Position numbers and translations under genes: made by a program
Notes under the pieces: model-generated
Seen by the model: only the letters and a program-made list of their open reading frames with translations
Told to the model about the DNA's origin: nothing
Databases searched by the model: none
Virus record (IMG/VR): IMGVR_UViG_3300037225_000932
Span: 109,352-173,351 of that record
From: a virus
Length of the DNA: 64,000 nucleotides
Reading direction: 5' to 3' (one strand)
Part shown: piece after piece, positions 12,432 to 62,175 of the stretch
Position numbering within the stretch: the stretch's first letter is position 1
Layout: every line of letters starts with the position of its first letter

Positions 12432-12445
12432 TAAACATATCTATA

Positions 12446-12653
12446 AACAGAGACACCCTCATATATTTTCTTCTAATCTCTTTCCCAAGAAAAAAAGAAG
12501 AAAATGAGGGTGATGGGAAATAGAGACTTTTTAATTGACCGTAGGAGACTCGAACTCCTATATCCACCTTAATATTCGGTGGCGTCTTACCAAGTTTAAA
12601 CGAACGATCTGGTCTCTACTCTCTGTGCCTTACGGCATTCATTAGTATACTGC
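12446..12653 (-). ncRNA. Three-way-junction RNA carrying a tRNA-like domain
   Basis: Outer helix ACAGAG/CTCTGT. Arm 1: AGAGAC/GTCTCT enclosing a tRNA-like fold (12535-12610). Arm 2: CACCCTCAT/ATGAGGGTG then TTTTCTTCT/AGAAGAAAA. The 3' motif TCTCTGTTTATAG is shared with 25046-25229, and a near variant occurs at 35498-35612. Own promoter at 12654-12680. Confidence 0.6.
12535..12610 (-). tRNA. Atypical tRNA-like domain with 9-base anticodon-type loop
   Basis: Acceptor GATCGT/ACGGTC (6 bp with one wobble), D-stem GTTT/AGAC with GG in its loop, anticodon-type stem CCACC/GGTGG, variable ATAT, perfect T-arm AGGAG-TTCGAGT-CTCCT. The anticodon-type loop GAATATTAA has 9 bases instead of 7, so no anticodon can be assigned with confidence (AUU or UAU possible). 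It may not decode. Confidence 0.5.
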
Positions 12654-12680
12654 TTTAGAACTTTCTTTTAAATTTCAGGG
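12654..12680 (-). promoter_or_regulatory. Phage promoter (CCCTGA/TTCTAAA)
   Basis: Strict copy. Drives the tRNA-like RNA 12446-12653. Confidence 0.65.
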
Positions 12681-25045: not shown

Positions 25046-25229
25046 TCTATAAACAGAGACACCCTTAAATATTTCATCTTCCTACCAGAAGATTACTTAT
25101 TAAGGGTGTGGTAGTAGAAAATCCTTTTTCGAGCATCATGGGGGACTCGAACCTACCCATTACCCGGTTTAAACCCGGGTCTCCGACCATTAGAGGAACG
25201 ATACCAAAAAGATTTTCTATCTCTGTGCC
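25046..25229 (-). ncRNA. Three-way-junction RNA carrying a tRNA-like domain
   Basis: Outer ACAGAG/CTCTGT. Arm 1: perfect 8-bp AGAAAATC/GATTTTCT enclosing the tRNA-like fold (25132-25204). Arm 2: ACACCCTTAA/TTAAGGGTGT then ATCTTC/GAAGAT. Both flanks (GGCACAGAGA and TCTCTGTTTATAG) match 12446-12653. Transcribed from the promoter at 25313-25339. Confidence 0.6.
25132..25204 (-). tRNA. Atypical tRNA-like domain, UUA-type loop
   Basis: Acceptor GTATCGT/ATGATGC (7 bp, two wobbles), D-stem CTCT/GGAG, anticodon stem CCCGG/CCGGG with loop GTTTAAA, T-loop TTCGAGT. Read canonically the anticodon is UUA, which would pair with the UAA stop codon. The T-stem GTAGG/CCCCC has two mismatches, so activity is doubtful. 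Confidence 0.5.
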
Positions 25230-25312
25230 TAAGATTACTTTGTTGTCCCATCATATTTTCGGGATCATAAACATTTCATCATCGGCTATTCTAATACTAG
25301 TTTAACAATCTC

Positions 25313-25339
25313 TTAGAACTTTTAACTATTTTTCGGGGC
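25313..25339 (-). promoter_or_regulatory. Phage promoter (CCCCGA/TTCTAAG)
   Basis: Drives the tRNA-like RNA; contains the end of the 25322-25636 gene. Confidence 0.6.
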
Positions 25340-35426: not shown

Positions 35427-35497
35427 TTTATCGTTTCCTTTCTTATCTAGTGTTAGATTTTGTTTATATTTTTCAGGGAAAAATATTCTGTTTCTAT

Positions 35498-35612
35498 AAA
35501 CAGAAGAACCACCGATTTATCTTTTCCAGGATCAGTGGAAAAGCCGGTGGTCGATCCTTGTTAGAGAGTTACTATCTTCATTATTTAGCAAATCTCTAAA
35601 CTCTTCTGTCCC
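35498..35612 (-). ncRNA. Three-way-junction RNA, same class but without tRNA-like insert
   Basis: P1 ACAGAAGA/TCTTCTGT (8 bp), arm 1 GTTTAGAGA/TCTCTAAC with a short loop, arm 2 ACCACCG/CGGTGGT plus CTTTTCC/GGAAAAG. The 3' flank TTCTGTTTATAG matches the elements at 12446 and 25046. An upstream hairpin CCCAG...CTGGG (35612-35643) may belong to it. Confidence 0.55.
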
Positions 35613-35676
35613 AGCTTTGCGACCATTTCTGGTATCTGGGATACGTTCTATGGATTTCTTTTATAGTAATAAAATC

Positions 35677-36174
35677 TTATTTAATAAATTCAAGTTCTTG
35701 TTCGAGGAAAGGAAAATCTCTAAATCTATCACTAGATACATAAATAAAACTACCACACTTACTAAATCTGGTTATCTTTCCAGAACTTCCGTAAAAATTA
35801 CCAAAACTGGTTGTTTTAACACGAACTAGATCACTAATTTCAGGCTTAGAAGTCACAATCTTACAATCTTCTTTATTTAGAATGCCAAGGCTCATTAAAT
35901 TATCATAAAAATCAAGAGACATAACCTTGATTTCATAACGATACCCAACAACTTGAGGAACAGCAGAGATCTGCTTCCGATTAAAATAAGAACAAAATTT
36001 GCCTCTTTTGCCTCTAATGTTTACATAAAAAAGACCTTCGCTATTGTATATTGAAATAATAATTCCTTTTTGAAGATCATTTTTAGACATTTTATCATCT
36101 ACAAAAACTTTAGTTCCAATAGTAATTTCTGGAGTTTCAATAATTGGAATACGAAATTCAACGGTAAGTTTCAT
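35677..36174 (-). CDS. Two-barrel SH3-like protein, paralog of 33141-33638
   Basis: 165 residues: 'EITIGTKVFVDDKMSKNDLQ', 'FYDNLMSLGILNKEDCKIVT', 'ISDLVRVKTTSFGNFYGSSG'. Same order as the 33141 protein. SD AAGGATTAAA. Confidence 0.65.
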   Translation of the reverse strand: MKLTVEFRIPIIETPEITIGTKVFVDDKMSKNDLQKGIIISIYNSEGLFYVNIRGKRGKFCSYFNRKQISAVPQVVGYRYEIKVMSLDFYDNLMSLGILNKEDCKIVTSKPEISDLVRVKTTSFGNFYGSSGKITRFSKCGSFIYVSSDRFRDFPFLEQELEFIK

Positions 36175-36199: not shown

Positions 36200-36226
36200 T
36201 TAGAACTTTATATTATTTTTCAGGGC
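36200..36226 (-). promoter_or_regulatory. Phage promoter (CCCTGA/TTCTAAG)
   Basis: Upstream of 35677-36174; supplies the stop of 36220-36633. Confidence 0.6.
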
Positions 36227-51727: not shown

Positions 51728-52975
51728 TTAGATTACTGACTCAACGAGATTACTTGCTCTCACACCATTGATCCTTTTTAAGAGATCAATAATGTGAGTA
51801 GTAGAGGTATTTCTCTCCTCAGTCTTTAATTCCCTGCGTTCCACAGGTATTTTCTTACTATTTAATCCTTCTAATTCTATATTTTTAGCAGCGTGAATAT
51901 CACGATCTTCTTTATATCCACACTTACACTCATAAACTCTATCTTTTAGTTCTAATTTGTTTTTAATACCACACTTAGGACACAATTGAGTAGAAGGAAA
52001 AAATTTGTTTACTTCGATTGGTGTATGAGATTTATTTTTAAGATTTCTGATAATTCCACCAAGACTTGTGTTTTGAATTTTCTTTCCGTGATTTACTTTC
52101 CAAGCATTCAAGCTTTCATCTTGAAAACAAATATACTTAAAGTTATTAGTTAAAACATTTACTATTTTGTTTCTTATGTCTTTCTTTTTATTATTTAGTT
52201 TTAAGTATTCTTTTTCTCTTTTTAGTTTATCTTTGAATTTATTATTAGATTTCTTTCGATTTTTCTTCATTATTTTTCTATCTAATCGTTTTAATTTTTT
52301 AGAAACAGGTATTTGGTATTCTATTTTTATACCATTAGAAAGAGTAAGTTGAGTAGAACAACCAAAATCTATACCAATAGATTTATCAGGAATTGTCTTT
52401 TCTATTTTATCTCTAAATGTAGTGATATAAAGATAAAAGTCACCACACTTTTTAACTAAAGTAGCATTTGCTAATTCTATATTTTTAGGTATTTGAGATA
52501 ATCCTGATACTTTTAATTTTTGTAAGATACCTTGTATTTTTACTCTTGAGGTATTAAAATCAATCTTATAAGTTATATTTGCCTGTTTTAGAGGAATAGA
52601 ATGTAGAAAACTCTTAAACTTTAGTTTACCTGTTTTTTTCCCTTTTTTCTTTAGTGAACTTAAGACTTTTATGCTTAAAAATACTTTAGCTTTAAGAGAT
52701 TGTTTCATTTGAGAAGAAAGAGCGTTTAACGTTCTATTTTCAAACTTATCAAGAACTTTGACTGGAACTGTTTTTACTTTTGTATCAAGCGTGCTAAGGT
52801 CGTCTGAAGATAAACAAAAATTATAGAAATATCTTGCTTCTTTGAATAATGTATTTAATTTATTTAATGATGTTTTAGAAAGTTTAGATTTAATAATTTT
52901 AAGTTCATAAGACTTACATTTTTGAGTAGAATGTCGTAGTTGCGTTTCGCGTTTTGTGAGTAGTCTATCATTCAT
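51728..52975 (-). CDS. tnpB: TnpB (IS605 OrfB-type RNA-guided nuclease)
   Basis: 415 residues, full length. RuvC parts: 'SIGIDFGCSTQL' (D203), 'CFQDESLNAW' (E287) and 'EDRDIHAAKNI' (D359). Zinc finger C332-x2-C335...C350-x-C352. All three catalytic acids are present, so it may be active. No TnpA is nearby. The guide (omega) RNA of TnpB normally overlaps the 3' end of the gene, here about 51640-51740. A solo TnpB can be a homing-type element or domesticated. Confidence 0.9.
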   Translation of the reverse strand: MNDRLLTKRETQLRHSTQKCKSYELKIIKSKLSKTSLNKLNTLFKEARYFYNFCLSSDDLSTLDTKVKTVPVKVLDKFENRTLNALSSQMKQSLKAKVFLSIKVLSSLKKKGKKTGKLKFKSFLHSIPLKQANITYKIDFNTSRVKIQGILQKLKVSGLSQIPKNIELANATLVKKCGDFYLYITTFRDKIEKTIPDKSIGIDFGCSTQLTLSNGIKIEYQIPVSKKLKRLDRKIMKKNRKKSNNKFKDKLKREKEYLKLNNKKKDIRNKIVNVLTNNFKYICFQDESLNAWKVNHGKKIQNTSLGGIIRNLKNKSHTPIEVNKFFPSTQLCPKCGIKNKLELKDRVYECKCGYKEDRDIHAAKNIELEGLNSKKIPVERRELKTEERNTSTTHIIDLLKRINGVRASNLVESVI

Positions 52976-61359: not shown

Positions 61360-62175
61360 TTACAAACTTTTTGTCAAAAATGTCTTAAGTTTTGTCAGAG
61401 CCTTGACTTCCAAAAGACGAATATTTTCGCGTGAATAATTCATTATTTTAGCGATATCCTGATAAGTCAGTTTTTCTCCATTCTCTTTTTGCTCTAAATA
61501 CCTGAATTTCAAAGCCTTTAACTCTTCTGTCTTTAGTGCTGCTAAGTTTTTGCTTATTGCTTCTTTCATTTTATCTAACATTTCTATCTTTTTATCTTCA
61601 TCATTTTCGTCTTTAGCAATATTTAATTCTTTATTATTATCACAATAGACGATTTGTAATTTATTTTCTTTTGACTTATCTTTAAGCATTTTAATAAAAG
61701 TCATTCTTAGAGAGTTTACAATATAAGTGGAAAACTTATTGCCAATAGAAATGTCAAATTTACGCATTGCTCTCATGACAGTCTCATTGCCATTTGAGAG
61801 CATTTCTGAAAAATCTAAGCCACTCTTTAAGAACCTCTTGGCAAAAGATATGACTAAAGCTAAATTACATCCTACAATACACTCTTCTATTTCTTTTATA
61901 TTTTTTCTTATTGTTCGTCTTTTATCTGGATTTATTTCTAAAGATAACTGATAATAATTGTAATTTAATCTTAAAAATAAACCTCTTTCTTCTTCTTGGC
62001 TTAATTCTGATCTGACCAATAAACTTTCATTTATTTTTTTACCACTTACGACCTTAAAATACCAACTATTATCTATTGGCTTTGGTTTTGGTAGTTTATT
62101 AATCTCATCTTCAGCATTCGAGCGATGAAACAACTCATTGTCGATATAAGTTATTATGCTTTCTGTTAGTTCCAT
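61360..62175 (-). CDS. Sigma-70-family RNA polymerase sigma factor
   Basis: 271 residues. Region 2 at about 100-165 ('NLALVISFAKRFLKSGLDFS', 'GNKFSTYIVNSLRMTFIKML'), region 4 at about 205-270 ('LTYQDIAKIMNYSRENIRLL' helix-turn-helix, then 'EVKALTKLKTFL'). It has the layout of a primary-like but short alternative sigma. Very strong SD (AAAGGAGG). Likely recognises the CCCTGA/TTCTAAA promoters found about 70 times in this window; this link is inferred. Confidence 0.85.
   Translation of the reverse strand: MELTESIITYIDNELFHRSNAEDEINKLPKPKPIDNSWYFKVVSGKKINESLLVRSELSQEEERGLFLRLNYNYYQLSLEINPDKRRTIRKNIKEIEECIVGCNLALVISFAKRFLKSGLDFSEMLSNGNETVMRAMRKFDISIGNKFSTYIVNSLRMTFIKMLKDKSKENKLQIVYCDNNKELNIAKDENDEDKKIEMLDKMKEAISKNLAALKTEELKALKFRYLEQKENGEKLTYQDIAKIMNYSRENIRLLEVKALTKLKTFLTKSL

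What the first reader, a model, noticed from the sequence alone, without database searches (positions are those of the whole stretch)
35498..35643. Third member of the junction-RNA class lacks the tRNA-like insert
ACAGAAGA/TCTTCTGT, GTTTAGAGA/TCTCTAAC and ACCACCG/CGGTGGT form the same three-helix plan with the shared TTCTGTTTATAG flank. Arm 1 has only a short loop. This suggests the scaffold is the conserved part and the tRNA-like domain is cargo.
Basis: partly seen in the sequence, partly recalled or inferred. Interest (0 to 1): 0.75.

Follow-up and report, generated by a model that had tools for sequence, protein, structure and literature searches.

The report
Phage three-helix RNA without tRNA-like domain
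A large phage carries three related copies of a compact folded RNA, two of which hold a worn-down tRNA-like piece in one arm and one of which (this finding) does not; the fold is real and not in RNA catalogues, but it was found in no other genome searched and its job is unknown.

Summary
On the minus strand at 35644-35494 there is a 5' hairpin followed by a three-way-junction RNA (E3) with the same plan and same 3' flank (TCTGTTTATAGA) as two other elements, E1 (~12640-12440) and E2 (~25235-25046). A P1-plus-flank descriptor finds exactly these three sites, against 0.003 expected in shuffles. Each folds 4.5 to 4.7 SD better than shuffles. Five pairs in the three helices differ by changes on both sides and none breaks, though I set the registers by hand. 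A model built from the three copies finds no fourth in the 173-kb phage record. Rfam, IMG/VR, GTDB, the phage records and four distantly related phage genomes gave no relative. E1 and E2 carry a tRNA-like domain in arm 1; E3 has about 25 nt there instead. Both tRNA-like domains resemble the phage's own tRNA-Glu and each other, so they look like one insert present or absent, not interchangeable cargo. The genes around the three copies are not related, so the RNA is the duplicated unit. Most likely this is a small orphan family of phage noncoding RNAs. Mechanism is inference only.

The parts
35611..35641 (-). P0 hairpin of E3: CCCAG ... CTGGG with inner ACCA-GAAA-TGGT, immediately 5' of P1 (approximate ends)
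   Evidence: pair probabilities 0.96-0.99
35500..35609 (-). E3 three-way junction closed by P1 (ACAGAAGA 35609-35602 / TCTTCTGT 35507-35500)
   Evidence: fold z -4.65; descriptor count 3 vs 0.003; model hit 25.7 bits, E 3.3e-5, by construction
35562..35598 (-). arm 1 of E3 (TAGAGA/TCTCTA), about 25 nt inside with an inner helix; no tRNA-like domain
   Evidence: no tRNA match here or 34
35508..35551 (-). arm 2 of E3: lower stem ACCACCG/CGGTGGT, upper stem CTTTTCC/GGAAAAG with A/U-rich 3' bulge
   Evidence: pair probabilities 0.9-1.0
35494..35503 (-). shared tail CTGTTTATAG, about 16-25 nt before the next promoter-like motif (35478)
35480..35507 (-). alternative AT-rich hairpin TTCTGTTT-ATAG-AAACAGAA then TATTTTT; excludes P1 and looks like a weak terminator
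   Evidence: sequence; centroid structure; the simple terminator scan did not list it
35677..36174 (-). 165-aa gene upstream of E3, with its own promoter-like motif at 36225; E3 would be its 3' UTR
   Evidence: no family
12440..12640 (-). E1 paralogue: P0 TGCC-GTAA-GGCA, P1 ACAGAGA/TCTCTGT, arm 1 with tRNA-like domain, arm 2 CACCCTCA/TGAGGGTG; own promoter-like motif at 12680
12535..12610 (-). tRNA-like domain of E1, 9-nt anticodon loop
   Evidence: RF00005 31.0 bits, cut-off 29
25046..25235 (-). E2 paralogue, same plan; own promoter-like motif at 25338
25132..25204 (-). tRNA-like domain of E2, anticodon-position UUA, bulged T stem
   Evidence: RF00005 36.1 bits; ARAGORN tRNA-Stop

Best explanation
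E3 is the third member of a small family of phage noncoding RNAs about 110-200 nt long: a 5' hairpin next to a closing helix P1 that opens into a three-way junction with two arms, followed by a fixed tail UUUAUAGA. E1 and E2 have phage-type promoter motifs a few tens to about 110 nt upstream and would be stand-alone small RNA genes. E3 has no such motif and would be made as the 3' end of the mRNA of the 165-aa gene, as a 3'-UTR-derived small RNA. In E1 and E2 a degenerate copy of a tRNA-Glu-type tRNA sits in arm 1. Inferred mechanism: the closed junction gives a stable RNA with a protected 3' end that acts in trans by binding a protein, and the tRNA-like domain adds tRNA mimicry, for instance as bait for tRNA-processing or tRNA-cutting enzymes. 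Shown: predicted structure with support from comparison, paralogy, lack of the domain in E3, promoter motifs. Inferred: transcription, stability, trans action, mimicry.
For: Descriptor count 3 vs 0.003. Fold z -4.5 to -6.4. Five compensatory pairs, none broken. Model R1 finds only these three in the record. Promoter-like motifs at 12680 and 25338 upstream of E1 and E2, none directly upstream of E3. Proteins next to E1-E3 show no mutual similarity at E 1e-3, so the RNA is the duplicated unit. tRNA-like domains score 31.0 and 36.1 bits, and their closest phage tRNA is Glu. UAA is the commonest stop codon of the longer ORFs (38 of 47 minus-strand ORFs of at least 110 aa in the window), so a working ochre suppressor is unlikely and mimicry fits better than decoding. 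The phage encodes a T4 Rnl1-like RNA ligase.
Against: No expression data. No relatives to show long-term conservation. The trans role and tRNA mimicry have no direct evidence. E3 has no promoter motif of its own and lies directly between a gene and the next promoter, which also fits a cis role. Helix registers were set by hand and some invariance reflects recent duplication.
Confidence: 0.42

Rival explanations
1. A cis-acting transcript boundary: the three-way junction forms the end of the upstream transcript (3'-end protection, weak termination or RNase processing site) just before the next promoter. In E3, P1 competes with an AT-rich terminator-like hairpin.
For: All three copies sit 14-25 nt upstream of a promoter-like motif with the same tail, where many other units have a hairpin plus T-run. 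In E3 the P1 3' strand can form TTCTGTTT-ATAG-AAACAGAA + TATTTTT.
Against: E1 and E2 have no T-run and no alternative hairpin. A boundary role does not need a P0 hairpin, two long arms or a tRNA-like insert. Only 3 of about 77 promoter-like motifs have it.
Confidence: 0.3
2. tRNA-processing cassette: E1 and E2 are precursors whose leader and trailer pair so that RNases release a tRNA (stop-reading or worn-out Glu), and E3 is an empty cassette that lost its tRNA.
For: tRNA-like domain directly inside arm 1 in E1 and E2. Another tRNA of this phage, anticodon CUA, lies inside an 8-bp stem.
Against: The tRNA-likes are degenerate: 9-nt anticodon loop in E1; UUA anticodon and bulged T stem in E2. 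An ochre suppressor would read through the commonest stop codon of the phage. The other tRNAs in the window (Lys, Ile, Glu) lack this scaffold. An empty cassette would not be expected to keep P0, P1 and arm 2.
Confidence: 0.2
3. Decayed duplicates with no function: a selfish or neutral repeat whose fold is inherited.
For: Only three copies in one phage; no relatives found.
Against: Both-sided changes that keep pairs in all three helices and high fold z-scores point to selection on the fold.
Confidence: 0.05
4. Chance inverted repeats.
For: None beyond AT-rich sequence.
Against: 3 observed vs 0.003 expected for P1 plus flank alone.
Confidence: 0.01

Closest known systems
GOLLD RNA (phage/prophage giant ornate RNA)
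   Same: Phage-encoded structured RNA of unknown function; a tRNA is sometimes carried inside its linker region (PMC12286853), the nearest precedent for a tRNA held inside another RNA.
   Different: Many GOLLD RNAs exceed 800 nt and form multi-subunit cages; this element is 110-200 nt with one three-way junction, and no Rfam family matched it.
T4 RNAC and RNAD
   [quoted passage not shown]).
   Different: No sequence relation was tested directly; no blastn match for E1, E2 or E3 in 50,697 phage records apart from one chance hit of E 0.6.
phi29-type packaging RNA (pRNA)
   Same: Small phage RNA with a three-way junction (from general knowledge).
   Different: Three dispersed copies here; no Rfam match; two copies hold a tRNA-like domain.
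tRNA (RF00005)
   Same: The arm-1 inserts of E1 and E2 score just above the family cut-off.
   Different: E3 has none; those in E1/E2 depart from a working tRNA in the anticodon loop or T stem.

Membership tests
tRNA (for E3) | match to RF00005 / ARAGORN cloverleaf | tested here: not met
   no match at 35494-35644
tRNA (for E1/E2 insert) | score over the RF00005 cut-off of 29 bits | tested here: met
   31.0 and 36.1 bits
tRNA (for E1/E2 insert) | 7-nt anticodon loop with a sense anticodon and regular T stem | tested here: not met
   9-nt loop in E1; UUA and 2-nt bulge in the T stem in E2
GOLLD / ROOL | match to the Rfam covariance model | tested here: not met
   cmscan of the window gave only tRNAs at gathering threshold
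Any Rfam family | gathering-score match over E3 | tested here: not met
   best was mir-973 at 21 bits vs cut-off 63, plus strand, clearly chance
Common E1-E3 family (this report) | P1 ACAGARGA-type helix, arm 1 TAGA../..TCTA, arm 2 CACC../..GGTG, tail TTTATAGA | tested here: met
Common E1-E3 family (this report) | presence in other phages | tested here: not met
phi29 pRNA | functional role in a packaging motor | not testable with these tools
   three-way-junction resemblance recalled from memory only

The most novel reading that the evidence does not exclude
A new modular class of phage noncoding RNA in which a three-way-junction scaffold is the working unit and a tRNA-derived domain has been grafted into one arm in some copies to add tRNA mimicry (for instance against tRNA-cutting defences), with E3 as the form without the graft.
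Probability: 0.25. Interest if true: 0.65.

Novelty: new variant of a known kind. Interest (0 to 1): 0.42.

Why it matters
Phages carry structured RNAs whose roles are mostly unknown. Three paralogues in one phage, with and without a tRNA-like domain, let scaffold and insert be tested apart: delete each copy, or compare what E1/E2 and E3 bind. If the tRNA-like part is a decoy, it would be an RNA-based counter-defence.

Tried and rejected
Known RNA family: Rfam at gathering and relaxed thresholds, nothing for the scaffold. Relatives by exact flank or promoter patterns: five IMG/VR scans and two GTDB scans gave nothing or single hits with no second element. L021 shares 24 nt with E2 but lies in an apparent reading frame without the P1 partner, so I took it as coincidence. 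Relatives through proteins: RNA ligase, 165-aa gene and terminase gave no close relative; the best-placed terminase match is 25% identical in an uncultured 485-kb phage, which has neither the RNA nor the promoter motif. Working suppressor tRNA in E2: unlikely because TAA is the main stop. Neighbour-gene duplication: rejected by all-against-all blastp. Coding: no credible ORF covers E3 (a 49-aa GTG frame on the plus strand is not convincing). Relaxed P1 search without the fixed flank in the window and about 60 kb of the left arm: no further copy with the tail. MAFFT could not register E3 with E1/E2 unaided, so model R1 used artificial anchor loops; its hits to E1 and E2 start inside the tRNA-like region, missing the true 5' half of P1 and arm 1, and its E-values are only a search aid.

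Full report
The window is G000:C1:109352-173351, the right-hand part of a 173,351-base virus record. Families found include a terminase large subunit in the left arm and, in the window, a T4 Rnl1-like RNA ligase and a sigma factor, so it is a tailed phage. No blastn match appears in 50,697 phage records for the stretches tried, and the best-placed terminase match is about 25% identical. TAA is the main stop codon.

Observation. Read on the minus strand, 35644-35494 shows a hairpin (CCCAG..CTGGG) directly followed by ACAGAAGA, TAGAGA..TCTCTA, CACCG..CGGTG, TCTTCTGT and the tail TTTATAG. The most stable fold is that three-way junction, at -49.0 kcal/mol and 4.65 SD below dinucleotide shuffles. 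In longer context a second state is close: the P1 3' strand pairs downstream as TTCTGTTT-ATAG-AAACAGAA and P1 opens.

Family. The same plan is found at 12640-12440 (E1) and 25235-25046 (E2). A descriptor of ACAGA with at least 6 bp plus the flank TCTGTTTATAG finds exactly these three, all on the minus strand; shuffled windows give 0.003 on average. P1, arm 1 and arm 2 hold five pairs that differ on both sides between copies and no broken pair. I set the registers by hand, so this is supporting, not proof. With the tRNA-like part removed, the scaffolds of E1 and E2 fold 5.2 and 6.4 SD below shuffles. Model R1 finds the three copies and nothing else credible in the whole record.

Insert. E1 and E2 hold a domain that passes the tRNA cut-off (31.0 and 36.1 bits) but is irregular: a 9-nt anticodon loop in E1; UUA at the anticodon and a bulged T stem in E2. 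Both align best with each other and with the phage's own tRNA-Glu (z 4.1-4.9). E3 has about 25 nt there. One insertion or one loss explains this; interchangeable cargo is not needed.

Setting. The window has a repeated promoter-like motif, CCCTGA(A/T)AA..ATAAAGTTCTAAA, almost always on the minus strand; its stricter form occurs 49 times in the record, all in the right arm. E1 and E2 have it upstream; E3 lies after a 165-aa gene whose own motif is at 36225. All three end 14-25 nt before the motif of the next gene. Their neighbouring genes are unrelated, so the RNA with its tail is the unit that was copied.

Relatives. Exact-pattern scans of IMG/VR and of GTDB genomes, blastn on phages and R1 on four distantly related phage genomes found none. 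Near relatives may have been left out of the collections, as the tool notes.

Mechanism. My favoured reading is a family of compact phage small RNAs, E3 being made from the 3' end of an mRNA, with a tRNA-like graft in two copies that mimics tRNA. The predicted structure and the paralogy are well supported; transcription, stability, partners and mimicry are inferred. A cis-acting transcript boundary is a serious rival because of the constant position before a promoter.

Known parallels. GOLLD RNAs sometimes carry tRNAs in their linker (PMC12286853), and T4 encodes RNAC and RNAD, of unknown role, in its tRNA region (PMC3014915; PMC9697503). This element matches no Rfam family, so it is filed as a new variant of the known kind 'orphan phage structured RNA'.

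Noticed in passing
window, about 77-87 minus-strand sites, e.g. 12680, 25338, 36225: Repeated promoter-like motif CCCTGA(A/T)AA-N-ATAAAGTTCTAAA before many small genes and several tRNA/ncRNA genes; none in the left 109 kb in its strict form. A phage sigma factor (regions 2 and 4) at 61360-62175 is a candidate to read it.
   Followed up: partly
window 60089-59854 (-): A different three-way-junction RNA (ATTAGGGAA/TTCCCTAAT) directly upstream of a tRNA-Arg(UCU)-like sequence that seems to lack a D arm.
   Followed up: partly
L009:1451-1596 (G000:45234-45379, +): A tRNA with anticodon CUA lies inside an 8-bp stem GCTTCTGT/ACAGAAGC, with what looks like pieces of another tRNA on both sides.
   Followed up: no
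window 27779-27560 (-): Promoter motif, then a structured leader closed by GCTTACC/GGTAAGC, directly before tRNA-Lys.
   Followed up: no
window 60821-60625 (-): Promoter motif followed by a strongly structured noncoding stretch and a terminator-like hairpin; probably another noncoding RNA gene.
   Followed up: no
window 51728-52975 (-); L022:4680-5969 (+): Two TnpB/IS605-type ORFs in the same phage.
   Followed up: no
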